Source: Siminovitchia fordii DSM 16014 = CIP 108821 (lineage in GTDB: Bacteria > Bacillota > Bacilli > Bacillales > Bacillaceae_C). Taken from it: a DNA stretch of 46,400 nt. Shown piece after piece: positions 6,773 to 28,929 of this stretch (within the stretch, counting starts at the first letter, position 1; every line of letters starts with the position of its first letter). Position numbers and translations under genes: made by a program. The notes under the pieces were generated by a model that was not told the origin of the DNA, searched no databases, and saw only the letters and a program-made list of their open reading frames with translations. The stretch is from positions 34,486-80,885 of the forward strand of contig NZ_KB894700.1 in the NCBI RefSeq assembly GCF_000374565.1. Reading direction: 5' to 3'.

Positions 6773-6790
6773 AAAACCCCTCCCTTTCTG

Positions 6791-10029: not shown

Positions 10030-10087
10030 TCGTCAGTCCCCCTAGTTGTTTGGAATGAGTGTAATGATTGACTTCACATGTATATAT

Positions 10088-10104
10088 TGCAATTAATATG
10101 CCAA
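10088..10104 (-). promoter_or_regulatory. Sigma-54 promoter of the amidohydrolase-BCCT operon
   Basis: On the minus strand TTGGCATATTAATTGCA carries the invariant GG and GC with correct -24/-12 spacing, and matches YTGGCACGRNNNTTGCW at all fixed positions except the CGR triplet. The predicted start is near 10076, giving a short leader before the ATG at 10029. A sigma-54 activator gene lies divergently next to it, which supports the call. Confidence 0.85.
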
Positions 10105-10156
10105 CACACACACCACAGCAAAATAAAGGGAACTCCTTGCATCATATCTTACTCTT

Positions 10157-10251
10157 TATTCAAAATTGTATAGAAAATAGTGGAATAACCTGTATATCCT
10201 ATATAATATTTCTCTCTATACAAAATTGTATAACCTATACGAATGTGTATA
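10157..10251. promoter_or_regulatory. Three palindromic upstream activator sites
   Basis: TATACAAAATTGTATA (10217-10232) is a perfect 7-2-7 palindrome. TATTCAAAATTGTATA (10157-10172) differs by one base and lies 60 bp away. TATACGAATGTGTATA (10236-10251) is a weaker copy 19 bp further. They sit 50-165 bp upstream of the sigma-54 promoter, as enhancer sites do, and directly before the regulator gene, so self-regulation is also possible. TATAAT at 10202-10207 may be the regulator's -10 element, flanked by these sites. Confidence 0.75.
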
Positions 10252-10285
10252 ATTGTAGTAATAATTAAGGTTGGGGGTATAGACG

Positions 10286-11653
10286 ATGCCATTGGAGATA
10301 GGAGAGCGGTGGAAAGAAATTGTAGATGGACTCTATACGGATGTGATTATTACTGACAAAGAAGGAGTCATTGTATATGCGAACGAATCGACAGAGTACT
10401 GGTTCAATATGGAGAAAAGAGATATTATCGGAAATAGCGTATTTGAATTAGAAAAGAAAAAAATTTTTTACCCGTCCGTTGCAAGAATGGTATTAGAAAG
10501 CGGACAAAAACAAACCCTAATCCAACAAACAAGAAATGACAAGAAGCTGCTTGTAACCGGGAACATCATTTATGACAGCAAGCAAAATATTGAATATATT
10601 GTCTGCTATTCGCAAGATATTACAGAAATAGAAAAGCTGAAGTCTTATATCAAGAAAGTGGAAGGCGAACTGGAGAGCATCAAAAAAGAATTGCAATTCT
10701 ACCAAAAACTTCAAATGGAAGATTCTCGCCTTGTTGCGAAAAGTCCTAAAATGCAAAAAGTATTATCGGTAATGGATCGTGTGGCCGATACTGATGCAAC
10801 CGTACTTCTCACTGGGGAATCGGGTGTGGGAAAAAGCCTTCTGGCAGAACAGCTTCATAAGAAGAGTAATAGAAAGGGAGAGTTCGTGGCAATCAATTGC
10901 AGCAGCATCCCTGAATCTTTAATCGAGTCAGAGTTGTTTGGGTATAAGCCTGGGGCATTCACAGGCGCCAGCCAAAAAGGAAAAGTGGGCCTAGTGGAAA
11001 AAGCCCAAAATGGAACCCTTTTTCTTGATGAAATTGGTGAATTACCAATCAATGTACAAGCAAAATTATTGATGCTTATTCAAGAAAAGACGTTTTACCG
11101 AATCGGAGATTCGCAGCCAAGGGAAGTGAACTTCCGACTCGTGGCGGCAACCAATGTAAATCTGGAAGAACTCATCAAACAAGGAGCGTTTAGGAAGGAT
11201 CTTTACTTTAGGCTATCCGTCATCCATATCTCCATTCCACCTTTAAGAGAAAGACAGGAAGATTTGCTGAACCTTTTAATGAATATGACCGAGAGGTTTA
11301 ATAAACGATATGACAGGCATAAAGAATTAACTCATGAAACAATCGATTGCCTTCTTCGCTATTCCTGGCCCGGCAATGTACGTGAGCTCTCAAACATCGT
11401 CGAACGATTGGTATTAACAATTGAAGAAGATGTGTTACTGCCTGAACATCTTCCTGAAAATATAAATACAGGCCATCTGGCAGCACCATTAATTGGAATC
11501 GGCCATAAATCATTAAAAGAAATCGTGGAAGAGACAGAAATAAGGGTATTAAAGGATGCCCGTAAAAAATACATTAGCACAACAAAAATGGCCAAGATTT
11601 TAAAAGTCAGTCAGCCAACCATTGTGAGGAAGCTGAAAAAATACGGTTTATAG
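10286..11653 (+). CDS. Sigma-54-dependent activator, PAS-AAA+-Fis
   Basis: This 455-residue enhancer-binding protein activates sigma-54 RNA polymerase by ATP hydrolysis. A PAS sensor domain fills residues 8-115 (TDVIITDKEGVIVYANEST). A short coiled coil follows at 114-142, then the AAA+ domain with Walker A GESGVGKS at 177-184, the sigma-54 contact loop GAFTGA at 223-228, Walker B GTLFLDEIGE at 243-252 and the arginine-finger region FRKDLYFRLSV. A Fis-type helix-turn-helix ends the protein (TKMAKILKVSQPTIVRKLKKYG). It faces the amidohydrolase-BCCT operon, and the palindromes between them are its likely targets. The PAS ligand is unknown. The start has the RBS-like GGTTGGGGG about 10 nt upstream. 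Confidence 0.93.
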   Translation: MPLEIGERWKEIVDGLYTDVIITDKEGVIVYANESTEYWFNMEKRDIIGNSVFELEKKKIFYPSVARMVLESGQKQTLIQQTRNDKKLLVTGNIIYDSKQNIEYIVCYSQDITEIEKLKSYIKKVEGELESIKKELQFYQKLQMEDSRLVAKSPKMQKVLSVMDRVADTDATVLLTGESGVGKSLLAEQLHKKSNRKGEFVAINCSSIPESLIESELFGYKPGAFTGASQKGKVGLVEKAQNGTLFLDEIGELPINVQAKLLMLIQEKTFYRIGDSQPREVNFRLVAATNVNLEELIKQGAFRKDLYFRLSVIHISIPPLRERQEDLLNLLMNMTERFNKRYDRHKELTHETIDCLLRYSWPGNVRELSNIVERLVLTIEEDVLLPEHLPENINTGHLAAPLIGIGHKSLKEIVEETEIRVLKDARKKYISTTKMAKILKVSQPTIVRKLKKYGL

Positions 11654-11958: not shown

Positions 11959-13164
11959 TCAGTCTAAATTTTCTACGACTGTCGCAATACCCTGGCCAAC
12001 CCCGATACACATAGTGGCGGCTCCGTATTTTACTCTTCTCCTTCTCATTTCATAGATCAACGTTGTAAGAATTCTGGCTCCGCTTGCCCCAAGCGGGTGC
12101 CCGTAGGCGATGGCTCCGCCGTTTACGTTGACAATATCCGGGTTCAGGTTAAGTTGTTTGATACATTCAAGGGACTGTGAAGCAAAGGCTTCGTTAAGCT
12201 CCACTAGACCCAAGTCTTCGACATTTAATCCGGCTCTATTCAACGCTTTTCTCATGGCGTAGATGGGGCCGAGTCCCATGACCGCAGGCTCTAATCCGGC
12301 GGTTGCTGAAACGACATATTTTGCCAATGGCTTAAGGTGATATTGCTCCGCTTTTTCTTTGCTCATTATCAATAGGACGGCTGCTCCGTCATTTATTCCA
12401 GATGCGTTACCGGCCGTCACCGTTCCGCCTGAAAAAAGTGGCCTTAGTTTGCTCAGCTTTTCTAAGGTCGTGTCGGGTCTCGGGTGTTCGTCTTTCTCTA
12501 CATAAATGACGTTTCCCCGTCCATCTGAAACCGGCACGGGAACAATTTCCTCATCCAGTTTACCACTCTCCATTGCTTCTTTTGCTTTCATTTGGCTGTT
12601 AAAAGCAAATTCGTCCTGGGCTTTCCGCGAGATATTATAGCGTTTAGCTACGTTTTCCGCTGTCTGGGGCATGCTGCCCGTTCCAAATTTCTCGGCAATC
12701 GCTGGGTTTGGAAAACGCCAGCCAATCGTTGTATCTACCAATTCCATATTTCCTCTCGGAAACTCGACCTCAGGCTTCAACATGACAAACGGCGCTCTCG
12801 TCATACTCTCCGTTCCGCCGGCGATGAATACATCTCCTTCACCAACCAAAATTGCCCTAGCCGCGTAATTCACTGCATCCAGTCCGGAGCCGCAAAGGCG
12901 ATTTAACGTTGTGCCGCCTGTTTCGATCGGAAGGCCGGCAATGAGGCTCGCCATTCTTCCGACATTACGGTTTTCTTCCCCGGCGCCATTTGCATTTCCC
13001 AAGACAACTTCTTCTATTTCCTCTGGATGCAGACCTGGATTTCTTTCCAACAATGCTTTAATGGCAATTGCTGCAAGATCATCAGGTCTGACCGTTTTTA
13101 ATGCACCTTTGTATCTCCCTATTGGCGTTCGGACCGCATCGACAATATACACTTCTTGTGACAC
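11959..13164 (-). CDS. Acyl-CoA thiolase, 3-oxoadipyl-CoA thiolase-like
   Basis: This 401-residue thiolase cleaves a 3-oxoacyl-CoA with CoA to release acetyl-CoA. The catalytic residues are Cys91 in NRLCGSG, His356 in GHPLGASG and Cys386 in MCIGVGQG. The pattern VRPDDLAAIAIKALLERNPG and the 401-residue length are typical of the PaaJ/PcaF branch, which acts on dicarboxylic 3-oxoacyl-CoAs. A GTG start at 13164 is chosen because AAGGGGG lies 6 nt upstream and the upstream hydratase stops 1 bp before it; the longer frame to 13314 lies inside that gene. It is the last gene of the PrpR-type sigma-54 operon and would finish the pathway by releasing acetyl-CoA from the opened chain. Branch assignment is by recall of family patterns. 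Confidence 0.9.
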   Translation of the reverse strand: MSQEVYIVDAVRTPIGRYKGALKTVRPDDLAAIAIKALLERNPGLHPEEIEEVVLGNANGAGEENRNVGRMASLIAGLPIETGGTTLNRLCGSGLDAVNYAARAILVGEGDVFIAGGTESMTRAPFVMLKPEVEFPRGNMELVDTTIGWRFPNPAIAEKFGTGSMPQTAENVAKRYNISRKAQDEFAFNSQMKAKEAMESGKLDEEIVPVPVSDGRGNVIYVEKDEHPRPDTTLEKLSKLRPLFSGGTVTAGNASGINDGAAVLLIMSKEKAEQYHLKPLAKYVVSATAGLEPAVMGLGPIYAMRKALNRAGLNVEDLGLVELNEAFASQSLECIKQLNLNPDIVNVNGGAIAYGHPLGASGARILTTLIYEMRRRRVKYGAATMCIGVGQGIATVVENLD

Positions 13165-13165
13165 A

Positions 13166-13939
13166 TTACTCCCCCTTAAAAGCGGCCTTTCTTTTTTCCA
13201 AAAAAGCGGCTGTTCCTTCTTTTTTATCCCCAGTGCTAAACAACACAGCCTGCAACGCTTTTTCCAACGCCAACCCCGCTGATAAATCAACGGTAGGACT
13301 TTCGTTAACCGCAATTTTGACCATTTTAATTGCTACTGGCGGTTTCCTTGCAATCTTTTCTGCGATCTCCATCACTTTGTCCATCAGCGAATTATCAGGT
13401 ACGACATGGTTTAATAATCCGAGTCGCTGGGCTTCCTCAGCGGAGATGATATCTCCAGTAAAAATGAGTTCTTTCGCCTTGGCCAATCCAACGGTTTTTG
13501 CTAATTGCTGGGTTCCTCCGCCTGCGGGTAAAATCCCTAAATTAATTTCTGGCTGTCCGAACTTTGCTGACTCACAACCTATTCGAATATCGCAAGCGAG
13601 GGCAAGCTCACATCCTCCTCCCAAAGCGTAACCGTTTACCGCTGCAATAACCGGCTTTCCCGAACGATACACATTTAGCAGTACATCTTGTACGGCTAGT
13701 CCATAAATATCCAATGGCTTTCTGTCATGAATCCATTTAATATCCGCTCCGGCCACGAATGTTTTTTCGCGGCCTGTAATGATGATGACCCTAACGTTAT
13801 CATCTAAATTTAACTCCTTGACTGCCTGATCAAGTTCAGCCCAACTGGCGGGATCCATTGCATTGCGCTTTTCAGGTCTTGAAATTTGAATGATGCCAAT
13901 CTGATTGTCAATTGTTATATTCAGCGATGAATAATTCAT
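13166..13939 (-). CDS. Enoyl-CoA hydratase (crotonase), PaaF-like
   Basis: This 257-residue crotonase hydrates a 2,3-enoyl-CoA to a 3-hydroxyacyl-CoA. The oxyanion-hole segments FVAGADIKWI and YALGGGCELA are present, and both catalytic glutamates are kept: Glu111 in GGGCE and Glu131 in GQPEI, 20 residues apart as in mitochondrial enoyl-CoA hydratase. Length and layout match ordinary beta-oxidation hydratases, in contrast to the unusual crotonase at the head of the same operon. It sits 14 bp after the 3-hydroxyacyl-CoA dehydrogenase gene and 1 bp before the thiolase start, so the three form a compact beta-oxidation cassette. Confidence 0.92.
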   Translation of the reverse strand: MNYSSLNITIDNQIGIIQISRPEKRNAMDPASWAELDQAVKELNLDDNVRVIIITGREKTFVAGADIKWIHDRKPLDIYGLAVQDVLLNVYRSGKPVIAAVNGYALGGGCELALACDIRIGCESAKFGQPEINLGILPAGGGTQQLAKTVGLAKAKELIFTGDIISAEEAQRLGLLNHVVPDNSLMDKVMEIAEKIARKPPVAIKMVKIAVNESPTVDLSAGLALEKALQAVLFSTGDKKEGTAAFLEKRKAAFKGE

Positions 13940-13953
13940 TCTGTCACCCCAAG

Positions 13954-14811
13954 TTAATTATCTTTGTAGTCATATACACCTTTTCCGGTTTTTCTTCCAA
14001 GCCTGCCCGCCTTCACATACTTGATTAATAATGGGCTCGGACGAAAGCGCTCACCAAGTGTTTTATGAAGGTACTCCAAGTTATTCAATCTTGTATCAAG
14101 GCCAACAAGATCTCCTAATTTGAATGGTCCCATCGGGTAATTTAAACCAAGTTCTATTGCTTTGTCGATCTCCTCAGGCGTCCCTACACCTTCCATTAAC
14201 ATATTAAAAGCTTCATTGCCTACTAAACTGCTAATTCGGCTAGTAACAAATCCAGGAAATTCATTAATTCGTACTGTTTCTTTCCCCATTTTTTCGGCCA
14301 CCCACTTCACGGTTGCAGCTGTCTCGTCGGTGGTCTCCAATCCTTTTACTATTTCTACTAGCTTCATTTTGGGAACCGGATTAAAAAAGTGCATTGCGAT
14401 AACTTTCTCCGGCCTAGTCGTATAGGACCCGATTTCTGTTGGACTCATCGTTGATGTATTTGTTGCAAGAATCGTCTCCGGCCGTGTGTATTGATCCAGA
14501 TTCTCAAAGACACTCTGTTTAATTTTTTGTAGTTCTGGAACCGCCTCGATCACAAAGTCTGCCTTTTCTGCACTCGCTTTCAAATCCGTTGTAAACTCGA
14601 TCCGTTTTAAGGCTGCTTCTGCTTCGTCTGCCGTCAGCTTGTTTCTCTCCACGCCCTTTGACAGGGTATCTTCAATCGTTTTTTTGGATTTCTCCAGGCT
14701 CTCTTCCTGAATATCCTGAATCGTGGTTTGGAAGCCGCCAACACCACTGACATAACCGATCCCGCTTCCCATTAATCCTGAGCCTACTACGAGTAAGTTT
14801 TTGATTTCCAT
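13954..14811 (-). CDS. 3-hydroxyacyl-CoA dehydrogenase
   Basis: This 285-residue NAD-dependent dehydrogenase oxidises a 3-hydroxyacyl-CoA to the 3-oxoacyl-CoA. The nucleotide-binding GSGLMGSG starts at residue 10, and the catalytic dyad is His141 (AMHFFNPVP) and Glu153 (KLVEIVKG), with the 12-residue spacing of the family. The C-terminal dimer domain ends [15 protein letters not shown] at 14811 is preferred, because AAGAGG lies 10 nt upstream, while the GTG at 14820 is only 1 nt from it. It is flanked by the zinc dehydrogenase and the hydratase genes in the same operon. Chain length cannot be told; it is of the short 3-hydroxybutyryl-CoA dehydrogenase type. Confidence 0.92.
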
Positions 14812-14842
14812 GTGTATCACGCCTCTTCAGTCGAATTCTAAA

Positions 14843-15904
14843 TTATTTTTGAAAGATTGGATTTTCTAGTATCAACTTACCTATATACCTTCCTTCTTCC
14901 ATAAATTCATGAGCTGTTTTCGCATCTGCAATAGAAAATATTTTGCCAATATGAGGGAAGAGATTTTTTCTTTGTAAGAATGCCACTACTTCAACGAAGT
15001 CTTTCAAATCTCCCATCCATGAACCGGTAATCGTGATTTGCTTACCAAAAATCAGACGCAAATCGACTTCTGTCATCGGCCCTGTCGTTACGCCGCAAAA
15101 AGCGAGCCTCCCTCCTCTGGCAAGCATTTGTAAACTGGTTGAAAATGTTTTTCTGCCAACATGATCCAAGACAATATCAGCCCCGCTTTTCCCGGTTAAC
15201 TCACGGACTTTTCTTGGAATGTCTTCATCTCTTGTCATAAAATCAAATGTTTCAAATCCGTTCTTCTTTAAAAAGTCGATTTTACTTTGTTCTCCGACAA
15301 TGCCAATTGCCTTCGCTCCGATACCTTTTGCGATTGACAGGGCAGCATAACCCAATCCTCCGGAGGCACCCCATATGACGGCGGTGTCATTAGCGGTCAG
15401 CTTTCCTTTCGTCACAAGGGCGTTCCATGCCGTTACGTAAGCAACAGGTACACCCGCCCATTGCTTGGTAAACTGATCGGGTATCTTTATGGCGCGCTTT
15501 TCTTCCGTCACTACATATTCTGCGTATCCACCGTCTATATGGTAGCCAAGAATTTGAAAACGCCGGCATAAAGTTTCTCTCCCGTTAATACAGGATGGGC
15601 AAGTACCGCAACCTTTCCCGGGGTATAAAACAACAAAATCACCTTTTTGGAGATATTTTACTTCGGTGCCGGTTTCAGTGACCCTTCCAACGACATCGCT
15701 CCCCGGAATGCGGGGCAATGTTAATTTATCACCCGTTCCACCTTTTCGCAGCCAAATATCCAGATGATTCATGCCGCAATATTCCACATTTACCAAAACC
15801 TCATTCGGCTTTATTTCAGGAACATCCGCCTCTTTCTTAAATAACAATTCTTCCGGCCCACCGTGGCTCTCCAGAACAATACCTGTCATTTTCTGTTCTC
15901 CCAT
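14843..15904 (-). CDS. Zinc-dependent medium-chain alcohol dehydrogenase
   Basis: This MDR-family oxidoreductase has 353 residues from this start. It has Cys43 (EYCGMNHLDIW) and GSD near 68-70, where classical enzymes have GHE, and a structural zinc site Cys99, Cys102, Cys105, Cys113 (GCGTCPSC then C). The NAD(P) fold carries WGASGGLGYAALSIA. In the benzoyl-CoA pathway an MDR dehydrogenase (Had) makes the 6-oxo substrate of the Oah/BamA ring hydrolase; as a BamA-like gene heads this operon, a Had-like role is a reasonable inference but not shown. A start at residue 6 is equally likely, as GGGAG precedes that ATG by 8 nt, while AGGAGG is 13 nt from the first ATG. Confidence 0.85.
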   Translation of the reverse strand: MGEQKMTGIVLESHGGPEELLFKKEADVPEIKPNEVLVNVEYCGMNHLDIWLRKGGTGDKLTLPRIPGSDVVGRVTETGTEVKYLQKGDFVVLYPGKGCGTCPSCINGRETLCRRFQILGYHIDGGYAEYVVTEEKRAIKIPDQFTKQWAGVPVAYVTAWNALVTKGKLTANDTAVIWGASGGLGYAALSIAKGIGAKAIGIVGEQSKIDFLKKNGFETFDFMTRDEDIPRKVRELTGKSGADIVLDHVGRKTFSTSLQMLARGGRLAFCGVTTGPMTEVDLRLIFGKQITITGSWMGDLKDFVEVVAFLQRKNLFPHIGKIFSIADAKTAHEFMEEGRYIGKLILENPIFQK

Positions 15905-15921
15905 GCTTATCGTCCTTCCTC

Positions 15922-17316
15922 CTATCGGCGATCTTCGAATCGTTTGAGCTTAGCCCGTATGCCATGTCCGGTTAATGGCTGTAACTCATCTTCATCAACA
16001 ATGCTGACATTGATTTTTACGCCTACTTTTCTCTTTAAAAGCTCTTCCAGTTCTTTTTTTAGTAAGAAATAATCACTGCTCGCATGTTTTGCCTCTGCTA
16101 TAACAGTCATTTCATCCCTTGCAGGAGAGCCGACTCTTTCTACATAGCAAAAGTACTCGCCGTTTACCTTCGGGTTTTCTTTAATGTATTCGCCGATCGC
16201 TTCAGGCCATATATTAATTCCTCTTAGCTTAATCATGTTATCGCTTCTGCCCTGGAAATAGTCAATCTTTTTATGCCAGCTACCGCAAGCACACTGTTTA
16301 ACTTTATAACTTGCAGAAATATCTTGAATGTTGTAGCGGATTTGCTGGGTGCTTGTCTTGTACAAAGCCGTAACGACTATGTTTCCTCTATGCCCAGGAG
16401 GCAGCACTTCACCTGTTTCGAAATCGACAATTTCCACGATGAAAGCATCCTCAAATACGTGAAGGCCGTCCTCTGCTTCACATTCAGCTGCCACATACTG
16501 CACTTCGTGGAATGCATACGAATCGTAAACCGGGCAACCCCATACTTTCTTCACTTCTTCTTTCGGCCCAAAAGCTGACAGCGTTTTGATATTCAAGTCG
16601 ACTTTCGGATCAAGGCCCATTTTCTTGGCTGTATTTCCGATATGAATTAAATAATCGGAAGTAGCCAAGATAGACGAAGCACCAAATGTTTTAACAAACT
16701 CCACTTGCTTCTCTGTCGGTGTCACTGCCCCTGTTCCTGTAGTAATTGGTGTGCAGCCGAGCCACTGCCAAAGCCCATGGTCCATAATCCAAGCTGCATT
16801 GTGTGTGGAGTATGCCCAAGAGTTCATGACTGCATCGCCGGGACGTATGCCATGCATATAAAACGTTCTCGCACTTAATATTGCGCCTATCTCTCTATCC
16901 CAGGCGGAGTAGATTGTTGGTCTCGGCGAACCTGTCGTTCCACCGCTTGTATAAAAACGGAGCGGCGTATGCTTGCCGTCTTCAAAATGATATTTTTGAT
17001 AATCCCCAAACGGTGGGTCTAGATTGATGCTGTCTCTGATGTCATCGATCGTGTATGATGGGATTTTAGAAATATCATCTAGACTTTTTACATCTTTCGG
17101 AGAAAAATCACGCTTGGCCCATAACCGTTGGAAAAACGGAATCTCCGAACCTTTTGCCAGCGTCTCCTTTAATCTTTTTAATTGCGTTTCTTCAATTTTT
17201 TCCCGGCTCCACTTCCATGTGCCTTCCATAAACTCTAATGGTGGTTCATATTCTGTTACCAATTTTTCGAAGTCTACAGATTTATAATAGTAAGGAATTT
17301 TTGTCTCAACGTTCAT
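15922..17316 (-). CDS. PaaK-like AMP-forming CoA ligase
   Basis: This 464-residue member of the phenylacetate-CoA ligase branch of the ANL superfamily activates a carboxylic acid to its CoA ester with ATP. The ATP-binding loop YTSGGTTGSPRPT lies at 122-134, and the C-terminal domain shows YFQGRSDNMIKLRGINIWP and TGHGIRAKLKRFEDRR, typical of PaaK relatives. The residues AAECEAEDGLHVFED are also characteristic. AAAGGAGACGG lies just before the ATG. No phenylacetyl-CoA epoxidase genes are nearby, so phenylacetate itself is unlikely; an aromatic or alicyclic acid brought in by the adjacent transporter is the best guess. It would catalyse the first step of the route. Confidence 0.9.
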   Translation of the reverse strand: MNVETKIPYYYKSVDFEKLVTEYEPPLEFMEGTWKWSREKIEETQLKRLKETLAKGSEIPFFQRLWAKRDFSPKDVKSLDDISKIPSYTIDDIRDSINLDPPFGDYQKYHFEDGKHTPLRFYTSGGTTGSPRPTIYSAWDREIGAILSARTFYMHGIRPGDAVMNSWAYSTHNAAWIMDHGLWQWLGCTPITTGTGAVTPTEKQVEFVKTFGASSILATSDYLIHIGNTAKKMGLDPKVDLNIKTLSAFGPKEEVKKVWGCPVYDSYAFHEVQYVAAECEAEDGLHVFEDAFIVEIVDFETGEVLPPGHRGNIVVTALYKTSTQQIRYNIQDISASYKVKQCACGSWHKKIDYFQGRSDNMIKLRGINIWPEAIGEYIKENPKVNGEYFCYVERVGSPARDEMTVIAEAKHASSDYFLLKKELEELLKRKVGVKINVSIVDEDELQPLTGHGIRAKLKRFEDRR

Positions 17317-17373
17317 TTTCCGTCTCCTTTATAATGTCAATATGTTTTATTCGGCAGAATATTCTGTAATTAT

Positions 17374-18747
17374 TTACAGTGGCAAGAACGTTAAACCAAT
17401 CGCCCAAATGACACCTACTGCAAGCAGGATAGGTAAGCAATAACCAAGAAAATCTCTTACTGTCAATCGAGTACCTACTGCAAGAATCGGAAAATACAAC
17501 AATGCCCAAAATGGCTGAACCAAGTTTGTCCAAATATCTCCATACGTGATCGAAAGAATAGCTCTCGGAATTTCTACGCCAAGCTCCTCAGCTGCAGGAA
17601 TGATAAATGCCGCCGTTGCTGTAAATTGTGATCCTGCAGAAGGGACAAACATGTTAATCACACCAGATATGAGGAACGTAAATAATGGAAATGTAGTTTC
17701 ATTAGCAACACTAACAATCATCTGTGTAACTTTATCTGCCAAGCCTGATTGAATGAGTATTGCCGCTATACCTCCGTAAATAGGAAACTGCAATGCGATA
17801 CTACTAGTTGCTGTAATATTTTTTGAAAAAGAATCCATGTAGGTCATGGGGTTTTTATGCACTAAAAATCCTAAAATGATTGCTATAAATGCCACCGAAT
17901 TTAAATTCAAACCATCGATGCCATTTATCGCAAAGAAATAAAACAAATAGACTACACCTAACAGACCGATAATCAAGATGGCTGGACGAAAGTTATTGAT
18001 TTTATCCGAAATAGATCCTTTCTGTACAAGGATGTCCTCGGTATTTTCCGCTGTTTCGATTGCAGCTGCAGTTTCACCTTCATGTTTAATGGCCAGGTCA
18101 TGAAAAGTCACAATATCCTTCTTATTTTTTCCAATAACGTAAAAGATGGTGGTAGTTACAGCTACAATAGCTATTGCAGTTACCATATTTAAAGTTGAAA
18201 ATGTAGTTGCCTGTAACGGATAAATCCCGCCTAAAATATCTGTAAAATTACCTTCAGTTGCCACAAACAATGGAATTGTTCCTGAAATTCCGGTTAATGA
18301 GATTGTAAAGGAGGCGTAAGATACCGCAGATAAAAGTCGGTAGTCCACTCCCTTAACGTTTTGGCCAATAGACCTTGCAAATAGAGCTGTAATTATCGGA
18401 CCAATATACCAGCCAATAAAGGATGTAACTGCACCCACAATACTTACTGAAACATAGGCAGAAGTCGGTCTTTTTACCATGCTCGACATTTTTTTAATGA
18501 TCCTTTGCATGACTGGTGTATCAACAAGGACCAATGCAGCAGCATAGGTAATAATTAACTGAAATGCAAAGGTGAATAGCATTGGTACACCTTCAAACCA
18601 ATATCCTAAAATTGAGATAGGGCCTGAATCAGTGAACAAAACCGCAAACAACATAGCCAACAATGTCAAAACTAAAGCAAATATAAATGCGTCCGGAAAA
18701 TATCTGCTATACCAATCTGCTACTCTTTCAGATAGACTTTTTCTCAA
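17374..18747 (-). CDS. AtoE-type short-chain fatty acid transporter
   Basis: This 457-residue polytopic membrane protein belongs to the AtoE family, related to the short-chain fatty acid permease of E. coli (about 440 residues). Marks include YFPDAFIFALVLTLLAMLF near the start, the IGWYIGPIITALFARSIG segment, and PSAGSQFTATAAFIIPAAEELG in the second half. A TTG start at 18747 is chosen, because GGGGGA lies 7 nt upstream and the size then fits the family; the longer frame to 18837 runs through a hairpin and a cre-like site. It lies second in the operon, between the BamA-like crotonase and the CoA ligase, and probably imports the acid that the ligase activates. Confidence 0.88.
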   Translation of the reverse strand: MRKSLSERVADWYSRYFPDAFIFALVLTLLAMLFAVLFTDSGPISILGYWFEGVPMLFTFAFQLIITYAAALVLVDTPVMQRIIKKMSSMVKRPTSAYVSVSIVGAVTSFIGWYIGPIITALFARSIGQNVKGVDYRLLSAVSYASFTISLTGISGTIPLFVATEGNFTDILGGIYPLQATTFSTLNMVTAIAIVAVTTTIFYVIGKNKKDIVTFHDLAIKHEGETAAAIETAENTEDILVQKGSISDKINNFRPAILIIGLLGVVYLFYFFAINGIDGLNLNSVAFIAIILGFLVHKNPMTYMDSFSKNITATSSIALQFPIYGGIAAILIQSGLADKVTQMIVSVANETTFPLFTFLISGVINMFVPSAGSQFTATAAFIIPAAEELGVEIPRAILSITYGDIWTNLVQPFWALLYFPILAVGTRLTVRDFLGYCLPILLAVGVIWAIGLTFLPL

Positions 18748-18775
18748 ATCCGTTTCCCCCTTTTCTGACCCAAAA

Positions 18776-18789
18776 TGTAAACGCTTACT
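18776..18789 (-). promoter_or_regulatory. CcpA cre-like site
   Basis: TGTAAACGCTTACT matches the consensus TGWAANCGNTNWCA at every position but the last. It lies between the first and second genes of the operon, 28 bp before the transporter start, where bound CcpA could act as a roadblock and lower the distal genes when good sugars are present. Confidence 0.65.
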
Positions 18790-18795
18790 AATAGA

Positions 18796-18830
18796 GTTCA
18801 GGTCTTTCAAAAAAGGAAAAAGACCTGAAC
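18796..18830. terminator. Intercistronic hairpin after the BamA-like gene
   Basis: GTTCAGGTCTTT and AAAGACCTGAAC form a perfect 12-bp stem with an 11-nt loop, 22 bp past the crotonase stop. No T-run follows on the minus strand, so partial termination or mRNA processing that keeps the first cistron more abundant is more likely than full termination. Confidence 0.55.
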
Positions 18831-18851
18831 CTTTCATTTTACATCAGTCAT

Positions 18852-19811
18852 TTACGCCAATGGAGAACCGCAAACACCACAATGCTTAAAGTGCTCAGGA
18901 ATGTCTTTTGCTCCACACTCGGAACACTCAAGCATTGGTGCTCCCCATAGATGCTCATAGGAGTCTCCTGTTGCCAAGCGGTTTCTAAGCATCTCATAAT
19001 CAGGCATACGCTTTTGGTTAAATGCTCTCATCGCTTCGTGCGTCTCAAACGCGCCTGTATGAACAGTCAGCCAATCTCTCGCATGACCAACAGTCAAATC
19101 AAGGGACATCTTCTTCCAGAAGTTTGTCTGTTCTTTCGTATAACGTACACACTCCGGCAGCTTATTAAGAAGTTTCTTCGCCATTTCATTCACTGCATCA
19201 TCAAGCTGCTCATAAGGGACAACTTGGTTTACAAGTCCCCAATCAAGTGCTTTTTCCGGACTGATTTCTTCGTTAAGCCACAAAATTTCTCTTGCACGGC
19301 GGTCACCCACCATAATCGGCAACCACTGAGTGGCTCCACCAGCTGCAACGCTTCCATGAGAGTTTCCAACTTGTCTAATGTATGCATGGTCAGCCATAAT
19401 AGCCAAATCACAGTTCATATTAAACTCGTTTCCTCCACCAACGGCCATTCCATTTAATTTCGCGATTGTTGGCTTCCCAATATCTAGTAATCTCTTATGG
19501 GCTTCAATAAACTGCCCCATCCATTTCCAATAATTATGCGGGCGATCTAAAATTTCAGCGTTTTGTTCTTTCATATCGGCACCTGTACAGAAAGCTTTAT
19601 CTCCTGCCCCCGTTAAAACAACGACTCCTACCTCGTCATCCCATGATGCATATTCGAACACTCTGCACATTTCTCTTAAAGTGCGGAAGTTCAGGCAGTT
19701 ATACACCTTAGGACGATTTATCGTAACCGTTGCGATTCCATCTTTTTTCTCATACTTAACAAATTTGAGATCTAATTCCTCTGGCTGTGGTGGATTCAAG
19801 AAATGTTCCAT
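18852..19811 (-). CDS. BamA/MenB-like crotonase with C-terminal zinc ribbon
   Basis: This 319-residue crotonase-superfamily protein heads the operon, with AGGAGG 8 nt before the ATG and a sigma-54 promoter upstream. The oxyanion-hole segments KAFCTGADMKEQ and MAVGGGNEFN are present. Glu129 (GGGNE) is kept, but the second hydratase glutamate is replaced by Gly149 in RQVGNSHGSVAAGGATQWLP. This layout, with the QxG-x-x-HGS-x-x-x-GG run, resembles the ring-opening hydrolase of the benzoyl-CoA pathway (Oah/BamA) and, further off, MenB and BadI, rather than simple hydratases. About 25 C-terminal residues add CSECG and CGVCG, a four-Cys zinc ribbon not usual in the family. A ring-cleaving or C-C bond-acting role on a cyclic acyl-CoA is inferred; a hydratase cannot be excluded. 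Confidence 0.82.
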   Translation of the reverse strand: MEHFLNPPQPEELDLKFVKYEKKDGIATVTINRPKVYNCLNFRTLREMCRVFEYASWDDEVGVVVLTGAGDKAFCTGADMKEQNAEILDRPHNYWKWMGQFIEAHKRLLDIGKPTIAKLNGMAVGGGNEFNMNCDLAIMADHAYIRQVGNSHGSVAAGGATQWLPIMVGDRRAREILWLNEEISPEKALDWGLVNQVVPYEQLDDAVNEMAKKLLNKLPECVRYTKEQTNFWKKMSLDLTVGHARDWLTVHTGAFETHEAMRAFNQKRMPDYEMLRNRLATGDSYEHLWGAPMLECSECGAKDIPEHFKHCGVCGSPLA

Positions 19812-19848
19812 TTAACATACCTCCTAAAATATTGTCTACTAGAATTAT

Positions 19849-19865
19849 CGCAAGAAGCGTGCCAA
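19849..19865 (-). promoter_or_regulatory. Sigma-54 promoter of the BamA-like/CoA-ligase operon
   Basis: On the minus strand TTGGCACGCTTCTTGCG matches the complete TTGGCACG -24 element and TTGC at -12 with correct spacing. The expected start is near 19838, so the leader is under 30 nt. It faces a sigma-54 activator gene, as expected for a regulator-target pair. Confidence 0.92.
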
Positions 19866-19915
19866 CATGCCAAACGCCAAGAATAGAGCGTTTTCAATAA
19901 TAAATTTATATTAGT

Positions 19916-19953
19916 CGTTCATAAAATGAACGGTATTGTTTAACTAATGAACG
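19916..19953. promoter_or_regulatory. Activator binding site (palindrome plus half-site)
   Basis: CGTTCATAAAATGAACG (19916-19932) is a perfect 7-3-7 palindrome, and AATGAACG (19946-19953) repeats one arm. They lie 50-90 bp upstream of the sigma-54 promoter in the divergent gap and are the best candidates for the enhancer bound by the PrpR-like regulator. Confidence 0.7.
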
Positions 19954-19990
19954 AATCTAACTATTTTGAAGTTTATTTTACTGCTTGTTT

Positions 19991-20019
19991 TTGATGATGC
20001 AGTAAATATTTGTTATAAT
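19991..20019 (+). promoter_or_regulatory. Probable sigma-A promoter of the PrpR-like regulator
   Basis: TTGATG (19991-19996) and TATAAT (20014-20019) are separated by 17 bp and would give a leader of about 80 nt. A second TATAAT at 20066-20071 lacks a well-spaced -35 element. Confidence 0.6.
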
Positions 20020-20105
20020 TTTTCTTAAACTTCTTTGTAATAAAATATTTTTAAAAATTTTCATATATAATACAGAAAATATGCAGGGAAAAAGAGGTGT
20101 CTGTA

Positions 20106-21980
20106 ATGATTGGCGTCATCGCACCCTACTCTAAATTCAAAGGAGAAGTCGAAATAACCGCAAAAAGGTTAAACATTCCAATCGTTGCTGAGGTCGGCGC
20201 ATTGAATTCAGGCTTAAGAAAAGCAAAAAATATGATCAAAACTCACAAAGTAAAGGTCATTATTGCAAGAGCTTCAACGGCTGACTACTTAAGAGAAAAA
20301 CTGGATATACCGATCATCAAAATTGAAATTACCAATTTTGATGTCATAAAAACATTGAAAAGTACAGATATTACAGAGAGTTTTGTCGTATTATTGAACC
20401 ATTTTACTGACCAGAATCGGATAGATATTCAAACAATCAGCGAAATAATGAATATCCAATTAGATGTAAAATACTTCGGGAATGAGCGTGATATCACCCG
20501 CCATCTCAATACCCTCGCCTCTCAAAATGACTTACAATCCATTGTCGGAACAGCTGAATGTGTCGCTGCAACCGCGGGTAGAAAAGGGATGCAATCTTTG
20601 GTTGTCTATACGCAGGAGGAATCGATCACGGAAGCATTGCTCCGGTCAAAAGAAGCGATGGAAAACTTACTAAAGGAAGAAATCAAGCAACGGCATTTGG
20701 AAACGATCATTTCCCATGCGTTTGATGGGGTGATATCGACGAACCAGGATGGTTATATTACTGTTTGTAACGATGTCGCAGCCAACTATATCGGTATTTT
20801 TGAAAACGAAATCATTCAACGTTATTACAAAAGCATTCATATCCCTCTATTAAAAAAGCTTTTTGGCGACGGCCAAAATATTACAAAACATATCATCAAT
20901 AATGGAAACCAAAAGTTTGTTTTAAACCGCAATCATTTAGGTGAAGAAAGCTATGTTATTACCTTCCAAGAAGTCGAGACTCTCGTTGAATCAGATTCCA
21001 ATATCCGAAGTAAATTGTATAACCGCGGATTTTTTGCCAAGTATCATTTTGAGGACATCATCCATAAAAGCAAGGAAATGAAACAAACGGTTTCTTTAGC
21101 AAAAGCTTACTCGAAATCAGAAGGAAATATTTTAATTTACGGCGAGAGCGGGACAGGAAAAGAATTATTCGCACAAAGCATTCATAATGAAAGCTTCAGA
21201 TCAAAGGGACCTTTTGTGGCTATAAATTGTGCGGCCCTTCCGGAAAATCTGTTGGAGAGTGAGTTATTCGGCTATGATGAAGGGGCTTTTACCGGAGCAA
21301 AGAAGGGCGGGAAACCCGGACTATTTGAAATGGCCCATAAAGGAACGATTTTCCTCGATGAGATTGGAGAAGTTTCCCTATCCTTACAAGCACGTCTGCT
21401 AAGGGTACTACAAGAAAAGGAAGTTATGAGAATTGGAGGAGAGAAAATTATACCAGTCGATGTGCGAGTCATCGCCGCAACAAATAAGAACTTAAAGGAT
21501 AGTGTCGAGAAACAAAAGTTTAGAGAGGACCTATATTACCGACTAAACATTTTGTATATCCACATCCCCCCTCTAAGAAAAAGAATAGAAGATATAGAGT
21601 TGCTTATAGACGCATTATTCGCCAAATATGGCGGTCAACCGGAATTTATTACAGATAAAATGAAAGAAGACTTTAAGAGATACAACTGGCCAGGAAATAT
21701 TAGAGAACTAGAGAATTTTATTGAACGAATCATCACAATTAAACAACATCTCCATGAAGATGTTCCCCTCACCGTCATCAAACATGCCTTCCAACCGAAT
21801 TTAGCGGAAGAAGCTGCAATGGATGATTATATTCGGGTAAAGGTTGGCAGTTTACAAGAAATGGAAACTGAAATCTACGAGCAGCTTCTTAACAAATTTG
21901 ATGGAAACAAAACACTCGTTGCAAATAAGTTGGGCATCAGCCGAACAACCCTCTGGAAGAAGGTCAAAGAGGTGACTTAG
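20106..21980 (+). CDS. Sigma-54-dependent activator, PrpR_N-PAS-AAA+-Fis
   Basis: This 624-residue enhancer-binding protein has, in order, a PrpR_N-type sensor (1 to about 170, MIGVIAPYSKFKG through KVIIARASTADYL), a PAS domain (about 195-290), an AAA+ domain with Walker A GESGTGK at 346-352, GAFTGA at 393-398 and Walker B GTIFLDE near 413-419, and a Fis-type DNA-binding end (LVANKLGISRTTLWKKVKE). PrpR_N domains sense small carboxylic acids or acyl-CoA-related metabolites (methylcitrate in PrpR), so the inducer may be the imported acid or a pathway product. The ATG at 20106 has GAGGTG 6 nt upstream and is preferred over GTG at 20097. It faces the operon it probably controls. Confidence 0.93.
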   Translation: MIGVIAPYSKFKGEVEITAKRLNIPIVAEVGALNSGLRKAKNMIKTHKVKVIIARASTADYLREKLDIPIIKIEITNFDVIKTLKSTDITESFVVLLNHFTDQNRIDIQTISEIMNIQLDVKYFGNERDITRHLNTLASQNDLQSIVGTAECVAATAGRKGMQSLVVYTQEESITEALLRSKEAMENLLKEEIKQRHLETIISHAFDGVISTNQDGYITVCNDVAANYIGIFENEIIQRYYKSIHIPLLKKLFGDGQNITKHIINNGNQKFVLNRNHLGEESYVITFQEVETLVESDSNIRSKLYNRGFFAKYHFEDIIHKSKEMKQTVSLAKAYSKSEGNILIYGESGTGKELFAQSIHNESFRSKGPFVAINCAALPENLLESELFGYDEGAFTGAKKGGKPGLFEMAHKGTIFLDEIGEVSLSLQARLLRVLQEKEVMRIGGEKIIPVDVRVIAATNKNLKDSVEKQKFREDLYYRLNILYIHIPPLRKRIEDIELLIDALFAKYGGQPEFITDKMKEDFKRYNWPGNIRELENFIERIITIKQHLHEDVPLTVIKHAFQPNLAEEAAMDDYIRVKVGSLQEMETEIYEQLLNKFDGNKTLVANKLGISRTTLWKKVKEVT

Positions 21981-22282: not shown

Positions 22283-23155
22283 CTATAAAGACGATTCTAC
22301 AGGTTTACCTTCCTCATCATATACATAAAATCCTCTCCCTGTTTTTCTACCAAGATTTCCGGATTCGACCATCTTTTTCAAAAGAGGAGCAGGGCGATAC
22401 TTTGAATCACTAAATCCTTCATACAAACCTTCCATAGTAGCCAGCAGAACGTCCAATCCTACAAAGTCAGCCAATGCGATAGGACCCATTCTATGATTAG
22501 CTCCCAGTTTCATGGCTTGGTCTACATCCTCAGGTTTCACGCCTTCCATCAAACAGAAAATCGCTTCATTGATCATGGGTACAAGAATCCGGTTAACTAA
22601 AAATCCCGGATAATCTTTACATTCAACCGGCTCCTTTTTTATGTCCCTGACAAATTGACTAGCAGTTTCATAAGTTTGTTTGTCAGTAAGTAATGAAGGT
22701 ATCACTTCTACCAGTTTCATTACAGGCGCCGGGTAAAAAAAGTGCAGGCCTATCACTTTTTCCGGTCTTTTGGTAGCCGATCCGATGGCTGCTATGGAAA
22801 GGCCAGAAGTGTTAGAAGCAATAATGGCATCCTTCGCTGCATGCACTTCTATCTGACGGAATACTTGTTTCTTAAGATCCAAATTTTCCGGAACAGCTTC
22901 TATAATAAATGGAGCTTCCCGAATTTCTTCCATATCTGTCGTCCCCGATATCCGGGCTAACGTTTCATCCATGTACTCTTTTGTGCATTTTCCTTTTTTG
23001 ACTTTTTTGCTTAAATTGTTTGATATGATTTCAAGGCTGTTATGTACCCTGCCTGAATCCACTTCCACTAAGCATACTTTTTTGCCGGCTTCCGCAATCA
23101 CTTGTGCAATCCCAGATCCCATCAATCCTCCGCCAATCACCGCAACCGTTTTCAT
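22283..23155 (-). CDS. 3-hydroxyacyl-CoA dehydrogenase
   Basis: This 290-residue NAD-dependent enzyme oxidises 3-hydroxyacyl-CoA, most likely 3-hydroxybutyryl-CoA-sized chains. It shows GGGLMGSG at 8-15 and the dyad His138 (LHFFYPAP) and Glu150 (KLVEVIP), and ends with LGRKTGRGFYVYDEEG. It is a paralogue of the enzyme at 13954-14811, with clear but modest identity, so each of the two pathways has its own copy. It is the last gene of the long leftward run, 16 bp after the YdcZ-like membrane protein, and a terminator follows. Confidence 0.92.
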   Translation of the reverse strand: MKTVAVIGGGLMGSGIAQVIAEAGKKVCLVEVDSGRVHNSLEIISNNLSKKVKKGKCTKEYMDETLARISGTTDMEEIREAPFIIEAVPENLDLKKQVFRQIEVHAAKDAIIASNTSGLSIAAIGSATKRPEKVIGLHFFYPAPVMKLVEVIPSLLTDKQTYETASQFVRDIKKEPVECKDYPGFLVNRILVPMINEAIFCLMEGVKPEDVDQAMKLGANHRMGPIALADFVGLDVLLATMEGLYEGFSDSKYRPAPLLKKMVESGNLGRKTGRGFYVYDEEGKPVESSL

Positions 23156-23171
23156 TCAAACAGATCCTCCT

Positions 23172-23606
23172 TCATTTATGATGAAACAAATAAATCGCAC
23201 TCAACATCAAACAAAGAGCTATTCCCTTTTTCATGTCCAATGGAATTTTTGGAGCGCCAAACAATCCAAAATGATCAATCAGAGAGCTGATCAAGAGTTG
23301 GCCTGTTATCACTGCCACGAAAGACATTGAAACACCTATTCTCGGAACAGCAACTACAATAGTGGCTAAATAAAACGCACCTAAAATGCCGCCTGTCAAT
23401 TGGTGTTTGGGTACCTCGGATACTGCAAGAATATTGCCTTTCCCCCAGAATACAACCATAAAAAACAATGCAGCTGTACCGATACAAAAAGAAATAAAGG
23501 TGGCTTCAATTGATCCCACCTTTTTTCCAAGACCACCGTTAATAGCTGCCTGCATTCCAACTGCAAGGCCGCCGGCTAAAGTTAGCAATAAATAAAACCA
23601 TTTCAT
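23172..23606 (-). CDS. YdcZ-like (DMT superfamily) membrane protein
   Basis: This 144-residue protein has four to five hydrophobic segments and belongs to the YdcZ/DUF606 branch of drug/metabolite transporters, which are usually about 140-150 residues and probably act as dimers. The N-terminal GGLAVGMQAAINGGLGKKVGSIEATFISF is a strong family mark. The ATG at 23606 follows GAGGAGG closely; the longer frame to 23666 is unlikely. It sits inside the acyl-CoA operon between the thiolase and dehydrogenase genes and could export a by-product or import a co-substrate. No direct evidence points to its cargo. Confidence 0.85.
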   Translation of the reverse strand: MKWFYLLLTLAGGLAVGMQAAINGGLGKKVGSIEATFISFCIGTAALFFMVVFWGKGNILAVSEVPKHQLTGGILGAFYLATIVVAVPRIGVSMSFVAVITGQLLISSLIDHFGLFGAPKIPLDMKKGIALCLMLSAIYLFHHK

Positions 23607-23690
23607 CTTTCCGCCTCCTCTTTCAAGAAGAGCAGCCCCTCGCCGATCCCAATAAAGAGCGTACAAGGAGGGGCCACTGGGCTGAACGAA

Positions 23691-24881: not shown

Positions 24882-24908
24882 TGTACAACACTCCTTCTTT
24901 CTGCTTGA

Positions 24909-25649: not shown

Positions 25650-25671
25650 TTCTTCTGCCTCCTTCATTACG

Positions 25672-27249: not shown

Positions 27250-27250
27250 G

Positions 27251-28852: not shown

Positions 28853-28893
28853 CGTATCCACCTCCAATCAATATTTGATCATGCAAGATGCAG

Positions 28894-28927
28894 CTTGGAA
28901 CGCTCCCCTGGAGAGGAGCGTTCCAAG
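28894..28927. terminator. Intercistronic hairpin between small unknown gene and acyl-CoA synthetase
   Basis: CTTGGAACGCTCC and GGAGCGTTCCAAG form a perfect 13-bp stem with an 8-nt loop, 2 bp past the stop of the upstream gene. No T-run follows on the minus strand. It could divide the long operon into two expression segments. Confidence 0.55.
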
Positions 28928-28929
28928 AA

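What the first reader, a model, noticed from the sequence alone, without database searches (positions are those of the whole stretch)
11959..21980. Possible undescribed cyclic-acid CoA pathway under sigma-54 control
The operon offers import (AtoE type), activation (PaaK-like ligase), an MDR alcohol dehydrogenase, a BamA/MenB-like ring hydrolase-type crotonase, and then hydratase, dehydrogenase and a PaaJ-like thiolase for dicarboxylic 3-oxoacyl-CoA. This order matches the lower benzoyl-CoA or cyclohexanecarboxylate routes (Had, Oah, beta-oxidation), yet no benzoyl-CoA reductase, BoxAB or PaaABCDE is nearby, and the host looks like a Bacillus. Functions are from family motifs; the pathway is inference.
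Basis: partly seen in the sequence, partly recalled or inferred. Interest (0 to 1): 0.72.

Follow-up and report, generated by a model that had tools for sequence, protein, structure and literature searches.

The report
New ring-opening enzyme family in Bacillus
A gene set conserved in Bacillus relatives carries an unnamed branch of CoA enzymes related to those that cut open carbon rings, and it likely lets the cells eat some small ring-shaped acid without the ring-reducing enzyme that anaerobic bacteria use; which acid is unknown.

Summary
The operon is real: seven genes on the minus strand (19811 to 11959) behind a sigma-54 promoter motif and a divergent PrpR-type activator gene. Ten other Bacilli genomes carry it whole or in part; all eight genes stand in seven of eleven loci, the promoter motif in eleven of eleven. 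The crotonase is no ordinary enoyl-CoA hydratase. It belongs to a separate family with a C-terminal four-cysteine ribbon, placed in the tree with Oah/BamA, next to BadI/MenB. It has the Oah-like glutamate and lacks the BadI/MenB aspartate. In four Bacillota genomes with benzoyl-CoA-reductase-type genes, relatives about 60% identical sit in those clusters, after a thiolase as true Oah does in another genome. This supports a ring-opening role. Two corrections: the MDR protein lacks two catalytic-zinc ligands, so it looks like an NADPH double-bond reductase, not a Had-type alcohol dehydrogenase; and phenylacetyl-CoA oxygenase genes do exist elsewhere in the genome. Against a pure Oah reading, the reductase-bearing genomes with this family lack a clear Dch. 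The substrate is unknown.

The parts
18852..19811 (-). Ring-hydrolase-type crotonase with a C-terminal CxxC...CxxC ribbon, 319 aa; first gene of the operon and the most conserved (78-87% identity over ten loci)
   Evidence: AlphaFold model mean pLDDT 83.8
17374..18837 (-). Short-chain fatty acid transporter family permease (AtoE type, PF02667), 487 aa; predicted importer of the acid
   Evidence: PF02667 326.7 bits against cut-off 27; TIGR00366 317.9 against 575.75, not met
15922..17316 (-). PaaK-like acyl/aryl-CoA ligase, 464 aa; predicted to activate the acid
   Evidence: TIGR02155 188.7 bits against 646.3, not met; PF14535 over cut-off; best solved chain 4r1l, phenylacetate-CoA ligase
14843..15904 (-). 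MDR protein without two catalytic-zinc ligands, 353 aa; predicted NADPH-dependent double-bond reductase
13954..14820 (-). 3-hydroxyacyl-CoA dehydrogenase (PRK09260 type), 288 aa
   Evidence: 456.4 bits, over the cut-off of 429
13166..13939 (-). Enoyl-CoA hydratase with both catalytic Glu positions, 257 aa
11959..13164 (-). Thiolase of the 3-oxoadipyl-CoA (PcaF/PaaJ) type, 401 aa from GTG at 13164
   Evidence: PRK09050 568.4 bits against 605, not met; start by ribosome-binding site
19850..19864 (-). Sigma-54 type -24/-12 promoter motif TGGCAC-N5-TTGC, about 50 nt before the crotonase start
   Evidence: mean 0.17 matches per shuffled window, 2 found; a motif of this type within 250 nt of the crotonase in 11 of 11 loci
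19916..19932 (+). Perfect palindrome CGTTCAT-N3-ATGAACG, possible activator site
   Evidence: not rare by the tool's shuffles (22 of 100 had a match with up to two mismatches); perfect GAACA-type palindromes also upstream in L013, L016 and L045
20097..21980 (+). Sigma-54 activator with PrpR_N sensor, AAA+ and Fis-type HTH domains, 627 aa; divergent in the window and in L019, codirectional upstream in the other nine loci
   Evidence: found beside the operon in all 11 loci

Best explanation
Window 11959-19864 holds a seven-gene operon behind a sigma-54 promoter motif that likely takes up a small cyclic carboxylic acid, would join it to CoA, is predicted to reduce a ring double bond with NADPH, likely opens the ring by adding water, and would finish the chain by beta-oxidation. 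The PrpR-type activator would sense the acid or its CoA ester and switch on the promoter through sigma-54 (inferred). The AtoE-type permease would import the acid and the PaaK-like ligase would make the thioester (inferred from family). The zinc-less MDR protein would reduce a ring C=C conjugated to the thioester or to a ring ketone (inferred from residues). The crotonase, whose readable kin sit in ring-reduction clusters, would hydrate and hydrolyse the resulting 2-oxo-cycloalkene- or cycloalkane-carbonyl-CoA to a 3-hydroxy- or enoyl-dicarboxylyl-CoA (inferred from tree, residues and neighbourhood). Hydratase, dehydrogenase and thiolase would release acetyl-CoA and a shorter dicarboxylyl-CoA (inferred from family). 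Shown directly: gene content, conservation, promoter motif, place in the tree, residue pattern and absence of benzoyl-CoA reductase subunits. The substrate is not known.
For: The gene set is conserved in ten other Bacilli genomes: eight genes in seven of 11 loci including the window; L016, L018 and L073 lack only the thiolase; L017 keeps activator, crotonase, dehydrogenase and hydratase. The crotonase is the most conserved member. Tree of 65 rows: crotonase family plus Oah 100/94; both stand with BadI/MenB across a 100/99 branch from hydratases and Dch. Glu at the ECH-144 position and Gly at the ECH-164 position in 134 of 134 rows; no Asp at the MenB/BadI position in 134 of 134. Kin of 58-61% identity: in L036 in the order SDR-thiolase-crotonase-bzdN-bzdO, with bzdN and bzdO over their cut-offs; in L037, L038 and L039 after a thiolase and before an AFOR-family gene. 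True Oah in L040 stands after SDR and thiolase too; SDRs of L036, L037, L038 are 62, 83, 69% identical to that of L040, thiolases of L036-L039 59, 79, 78, 79% (L039 begins at the contig end, so no SDR can be seen). All four genomes have a Had-like gene at 267-288 bits, as does Oah-bearing G244 at 252. No HGD-D gene in 11 of 11 operon genomes. MDR: Asn in place of the zinc Cys in 30 of 30 rows, no His at the second ligand in 30 of 30.
Against: No substrate evidence of any kind. The reductase-associated relatives are not the nearest ones: in the tree the Bacilli proteins lie closer to database rows (some named Thermomicrobiales or Actinomycetota) whose neighbourhoods could not be read. The Oah stem is long (2.1-2.4 changes per column) and a tree joining Oah with BadI/MenB, leaving the crotonase family outside, is not rejected (p-AU 0.33); joining the crotonase family with BadI/MenB is only weakly rejected (p 0.041). 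The Oah, BadI and MenB cut-offs are missed. The four reductase-bearing genomes with this family lack a Dch above the level of generic hydratases, so their pathway may not be the Dch-Had-Oah one. In L037-L039 no curated BamB model was met (tested on L037 alone). Two of 30 MDR rows, both distant, have Cys at the second zinc position. A permease of the SCFA family fits linear acids as well.
Confidence: 0.5

Rival explanations
1. Linear-acid pathway: the operon degrades a short or branched unsaturated linear acid, with the crotonase acting as a plain hydratase or beta-diketone hydrolase on a chain and the MDR protein as a linear enoyl-CoA reductase.
For: The permease is of the short-chain fatty acid family; hydratase, dehydrogenase and thiolase are of beta-oxidation types; the crotonase scores 165.8 bits with a short-chain enoyl-CoA hydratase model; a sigma-54 regulated atoE-hbd-cotX operon assigned to butyrate/butanol synthesis is listed for Clostridium (PMC6615313, passages read).
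Against: The operon already has a hydratase with both Glu; the crotonase lies outside the enoyl-CoA hydratases, has Gly for the second catalytic Glu in 134 of 134 rows, and its readable kin sit in ring-reduction clusters.
Confidence: 0.18
2. BadI-type route: the crotonase hydrolyses saturated 2-oxocyclohexane-1-carbonyl-CoA to pimelyl-CoA and an acyl-CoA dehydrogenase from elsewhere in the genome continues.
For: BadI scores higher than Oah for the window protein (177.4 against 158.4 bits); the reductase-bearing genomes with this family lack a clear Dch, and one of them (L069) has an acyl-CoA-dehydrogenase-like frame beside Had-like and hydratase genes (judged by its first residues, no family search).
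Against: For the relatives in L036 and L037 Oah scores higher than BadI (201.3 against 193.2, 204.6 against 201.7). The BadI/MenB aspartate is absent in 134 of 134 rows and the Oah-type Glu is present where BadI has Val; the tree favours Oah; no gene in the operon is of the acyl-CoA dehydrogenase family, although saturated pimelyl-CoA would need one.
Confidence: 0.15
3. One reading: hydratase, MDR and crotonase are Dch, Had and Oah counterparts acting on a cyclohexadiene- or cyclohexenecarboxylate, with the MDR protein oxidising the ring alcohol.
For: With ligase, dehydrogenase and thiolase the gene list would cover every step from cyclohexa-1,5-diene-1-carbonyl-CoA onward (route to 3-hydroxypimeloyl-CoA as given in PMC5742626, passages read; the last steps recalled).
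Against: The MDR protein lacks both catalytic-zinc ligands kept by all five Had or Had-like references, scores 80.3 bits against 338.65, and none of 11 operon genomes has a Had match at E <= 1e-60; the hydratase does not group with Dch.
Confidence: 0.12

Closest known systems
[quoted passage not shown]
   Same: Nearest family in the tree (100/94); same Glu at the ECH-144 position, Gly at ECH-164, no MenB-type Asp; in relatives the same place after SDR and thiolase (L036, L037, L038 against L040)
   Different: Score 158.4 bits against a cut-off of 464.45; lacks the roughly 50-aa insert of Oah and has a C-terminal four-Cys ribbon that the five Oah or Oah-like rows lack
2-ketocyclohexanecarboxyl-CoA hydrolase (BadI) and the ali-bad cyclohexanecarboxylate cluster
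   Same: Same branch of the crotonases; a bad-ali cluster that also works aerobically is on record (PMC9795900, passages read)
   Different: 177.4 against 467.6 bits; Asp missing and Glu present; the operon has no acyl-CoA dehydrogenase, SDR or AliA-type ligase match
Benzoyl-CoA pathway clusters (class I bzd and class II bam type)
   Same: Relatives of 58-61% identity of the crotonase lie in such clusters
   Different: No HGD-D reductase subunit in 11 of 11 operon genomes; AFOR in one of 11, G016
Phenylacetate pathway PaaF/PaaH/PaaJ lower part
   Same: Hydratase, 3-hydroxyacyl-CoA dehydrogenase and 3-oxoadipyl-type thiolase are of these kinds
   Different: No oxygenase in the operon; two operon genomes have no PaaA match at E <= 1e-10 and a third only one below the cut-off
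Sigma-54 regulated atoE-hbd-cotX operon of Clostridium
   Same: AtoE-type permease and 3-hydroxyacyl-CoA dehydrogenase under sigma-54 (PMC6615313, passages read)
   Different: No crotonase of this family, ligase or MDR is listed there; assigned to butyrate/butanol synthesis

Membership tests
Oah/BamA (TIGR03200) | Score over the curated cut-off of 464.45 bits | tested here: not met
   158.4 bits; relatives in L036 and L037 201.3 and 204.6 bits
Oah/BamA (TIGR03200) | Groups with true Oah in a tree | tested here: inconclusive
   Joined 100/94 and 100/93, but a tree with Oah nearer BadI/MenB is not rejected (p-AU 0.33)
[quoted passage not shown]
   Needs enzyme assay
BadI (TIGR03210) | Score over 467.6 bits | tested here: not met
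   177.4 bits
BadI (TIGR03210) | Asp in the GS[FV]D loop, as in the 4 BadI and 3 MenB rows | tested here: not met
   Ala or Pro in 134 of 134 rows
MenB (TIGR01929) | Score over 342.7 bits | tested here: not met
   180.0 bits; the genome has another crotonase that groups with MenB, L001
Ordinary enoyl-CoA hydratase | Both catalytic Glu (ECH-144 and ECH-164, numbering recalled) and place among hydratases | tested here: not met
   Glu129 present, Gly149 for the second; outside by a 100/99 branch
Had (TIGR03201) | Score over 338.65 bits | tested here: not met
   80.3 bits
Had (TIGR03201) | Catalytic-zinc Cys and His, as in the five Had or Had-like references (ligand positions recalled) | tested here: not met
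   Asn in 30 of 30; Ser 23, Ala 3, Thr 2, Cys 2 and no His in 30
Sigma-54 controlled operon | -24/-12 promoter, enhancer-binding activator, sigma-54 gene | tested here: met
   Motif in 11 of 11 loci; PrpR_N plus AAA+ activator; PF04552 in 11 of 11 genomes. Transcription itself not tested
Benzoyl-CoA pathway | Benzoyl-CoA reductase of class I or II in the genome | tested here: not met
   No HGD-D match in G000 or ten other operon genomes, found in 6 of 6 reference genomes; AFOR none in G000, one match in G016

The most novel reading that the evidence does not exclude
A third family of CoA ring-opening hydrolases stands in for Oah/BamA in some benzoyl-CoA-reductase-bearing Bacillota, where bamA surveys would miss it, and in Bacilli has been recruited to a route that needs neither oxygen nor benzoyl-CoA reductase: a ligase makes the CoA ester of a hydroxy-aryl or similar pseudo-aromatic acid, the zinc-less MDR protein reduces its keto tautomer with plain NADPH, and the ring is then opened by water.
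Probability: 0.08. Interest if true: 0.9.

Novelty: new variant of a known kind. Interest (0 to 1): 0.52.

Why it matters
If the ring-opening reading holds, there is a separate, ribbon-bearing family of CoA ring hydrolases that the NCBIfam models do not name (none of the 25 best-scoring of 72 matching families reaches its cut-off). It would explain how some Bacillota with benzoyl-CoA-reductase genes do without bamA, a gene used as a marker for anaerobic aromatic degradation (PMC3794298, passages read), and it would give Bacilli a self-contained, inducible route for some cyclic acid. The operon is small, has one main promoter motif and one activator gene, and can be tested directly with a handful of candidate acids and purified enzymes.

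Tried and rejected
Ordinary enoyl-CoA hydratase: rejected by tree and residues. MenB: the genome has another crotonase that groups with MenB (L001). Had-type MDR and Dch-type hydratase: rejected. A hidden benzoyl-CoA reductase or BoxB in the genome: none found. The neighbouring operon 22283-28867 as part of the pathway: it does not accompany the crotonase in the relatives examined. The sigma-54 activator at 10286-11653 as regulator of this operon: more likely it serves the sigma-54 motif at 10089-10103 before an amidohydrolase operon. Flanking genes of relatives as clues to the substrate: of ten frames scanned, two are NCS1-type permeases, three MacAB-type exporter parts, one a second hydratase after the thiolase of L013, and four match no family. 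Plasmid hits (633 records, identity under 60%): ten of the 30 listed were opened and gave BadI, BadI-like and MenB references only. A PaaK relative at 40% on a Variovorax plasmid stands, with one gene between, near an NADPH:quinone oxidoreductase-type MDR gene, which fits a ligase-reductase pair but names no substrate. Equal contig lengths suggest that PaaK relatives of 65-69% and MDR relatives of 46-51% identity share contigs (seven lengths: 20953, 8564, 11536, 10456, 9006, 5437, 5244); some named relatives in those lists are actinobacteria, but the lists give no contig identity, so this is a hint only. Paper searches (listings with starts of abstracts seen) showed no paper on this operon or crotonase family; the library holds open-licence papers only, so this is not proof of absence.


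Full report
Anatomy. The window lies in a 4.5-Mb assembly of 45 contigs, 99.64% complete. Open frames and family scans confirm the operon on the minus strand: crotonase, SCFA-family permease, PaaK-like ligase, MDR, 3-hydroxyacyl-CoA dehydrogenase, enoyl-CoA hydratase, thiolase. The first five gaps are 14-57 nt; the thiolase most likely starts at GTG 13164, one base after the hydratase stop. An activator with PrpR_N, sigma-54 AAA+ and Fis-type HTH domains lies divergently at 20097-21980.

Control. A TGGCAC-N5-TTGC motif stands at 19850-19864 on the minus strand. A motif of this type (one locus, L013, with ATGC at its end) lies within 250 nt before the crotonase in 11 of 11 loci, and 200 mononucleotide shuffles gave a mean of 0.0 loci. 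The sigma-54 gene is present in 11 of 11 genomes; it lies directly downstream of the operon in G020, and in G016 after one opposite-strand frame. The activator gene is divergent in the window and in L019 and codirectional upstream in the other nine loci. Sigma-54 control is therefore well supported by sequence; no transcript was measured.

Conservation. Relatives of the crotonase at E <= 1e-60 occur in 2 of 33 other genomes of the family, and at E <= 1e-90 in 3 of 396 others of the order sample and 4 of 397 others of the phylum sample; nine loci came from genome contigs, of which eight are close. Eight genes are present in seven of the 11 loci. L016, L018 and L073 lack the thiolase at the locus, and L017 lacks permease, ligase, MDR and thiolase there. 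In L019 the permease lies ahead of the crotonase and has its own sigma-54-type motif. The crotonase is the best conserved member (78-87% identity, against 71-81% for the ligase and 53-66% for MDR).

The crotonase. It misses the curated cut-offs of Oah, BadI and MenB. In a tree of 65 rows (21 of the 120 listed database relatives were included) the family joins Oah with 100/94, and both stand with BadI/MenB across a 100/99 branch from hydratases and Dch. With six long or odd rows removed and the database rows halved (49 rows) the join is 100/93; holding the crotonase family with BadI/MenB is weakly rejected (p-AU 0.041), while holding Oah with BadI/MenB is not rejected (p 0.33). So it is a distinct line in the ring-hydrolase branch, best placed beside Oah but not firmly; the program warns of long branches in both trees. 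Over 134 rows (14 loci and all 120 listed proteins) Glu129, Gly149, Asp79 and Gln147 are invariant, no Asp occurs at the BadI/MenB loop position, and the four ribbon cysteines are present in 133, 133, 134 and 133 rows. The five Oah or Oah-like rows share the Glu and the missing Asp; the BadI and MenB rows have Val and Asp. A model (mean pLDDT 83.8; the loop 155-158 is under 50) matches MenB chains best by E-value, though with rmsd near 16, and hydratases such as 3pea best by TM-score.

Neighbourhood of distant relatives. The four phylum-sample relatives outside the window's order all sit in clusters of benzoyl-CoA-reductase type. In L036 the order is SDR-thiolase-crotonase-bzdN-bzdO, the last two over their cut-offs. 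In L037, L038 and L039 the crotonase lies after a thiolase (in L038 and L039 with a frame of 121-130 aa between) and before an AFOR-family gene followed by ferredoxin- and Hdr-like genes; the curated models tested on L037 named no BamB, so 'bam type' rests on family and gene order. The SDRs of L036, L037 and L038 are 62, 83 and 69% and the thiolases of L036-L039 59, 79, 78 and 79% identical to those before true Oah in L040. None of these four genomes has a second TIGR03200 match at E <= 1e-42, though G123 and G158 are only 85 and 83% complete. All four have a Had-like gene (267-288 bits, below the cut-off, as in G244 which has true Oah; three other Oah genomes have Had over the cut-off). Against a straight swap, Dch-like matches of 146-174 bits are found in the four Oah genomes tested (none reaches the Dch cut-off of 292.5) but not in these four, where matches are at generic level (96-97 bits) or absent at E <= 1e-25. 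Their substrate may thus be a 2-oxocyclohexane rather than a 6-oxocyclohexene ring. These relatives also form a clade apart: the Bacilli proteins lie nearer to database rows whose neighbourhood I could not read.

The MDR protein. All eight operon MDRs aligned keep the four structural-zinc cysteines but have Asn for the catalytic Cys and Ser or Ala for the His that five Had or Had-like references keep. Over 30 rows (window, seven loci and 22 of 120 listed proteins) Asn46 is invariant; position 69 is Ser 23, Ala 3, Thr 2, Cys 2, never His; one row lacks the structural cysteines. At the end of the second Rossmann strand these rows have Val or Ala where three of five Had or Had-like references have Asp, then Gly or Ser, and an invariant Lys208, which I read as NADPH preference (inference). 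Zinc-less MDR proteins are, as recalled, double-bond reductases. Sequence search against solved chains is mixed: the best is 2eih, filed as alcohol dehydrogenase, and both alcohol dehydrogenases and quinone or crotonyl-CoA reductases follow.

Genome background. No HGD-D subunit in 11 operon genomes, while six of six reference genomes have them; AFOR only in G016 of the 11; no BoxB in G000. PaaA is over its cut-off in 8 of 11, with two copies in G000; G708 has a weak match and G020 and G806 none at E <= 1e-10, so the operon does not depend on the phenylacetate pathway everywhere.

Verdict. The reading as a CoA pathway that opens a ring is the best-supported one, at about even odds, with the MDR step changed from oxidation to reduction. 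Substrate, order of reduction and ring opening, and the exact product are inference. Of the literature I saw search listings and passages of PMC5742626, PMC9795900, PMC3794298 and PMC6615313; none of the passages describes this operon.

Noticed in passing
window 5231-11653: A separate sigma-54 unit: activator with PAS domain (10286-11653, +) and a TGGCAT-N5-TTGC motif at 10103-10089 (-) before an amidohydrolase, an M20-type amidohydrolase-like frame and a BCCT transporter.
   Followed up: partly
window 22283-31057: Next genes: 3-hydroxybutyryl-CoA dehydrogenase, YdcZ-type membrane protein, BktB-like thiolase, FabG, FadX-like CoA-transferase, acyl-CoA ligase, a 186-aa frame with no NCBIfam or Pfam match, and an SSS symporter; they do not travel with the crotonase operon in the loci examined.
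   Followed up: partly
L036, L037, L038, L039: Bacillota genomes with benzoyl-CoA-reductase-type clusters and Had-like genes but neither a true Oah (no second match at E <= 1e-42) nor a clear Dch; the ribbon crotonase stands in their clusters.
   Followed up: partly
L045 18226-19563 and L046 19124-19900: The sigma-54 gene lies directly downstream of the operon in G020, and in G016 after one opposite-strand frame.
   Followed up: no
window 20097-21980; L012-L019, L045, L046, L073: The activator gene is divergent in the window and L019 but codirectional upstream in the other nine loci, so it has been turned round at least once.
   Followed up: no
G000 C8:87423-88310 and C1:720327-721214: Two PaaA genes over the cut-off, the second near two crotonases at C1:717974-719491; possibly two phenylacetate-type clusters in one genome.
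   Followed up: no
L072 11196-16545: On a Variovorax plasmid a PaaK-like ligase (40% identity) stands near an NADPH:quinone oxidoreductase-type MDR gene, an SDR and an amidohydrolase.
   Followed up: no
window 42768-46343: Long surface protein with DUF11 repeats, a Cna-B-like match and an LPXTG anchor.
   Followed up: no
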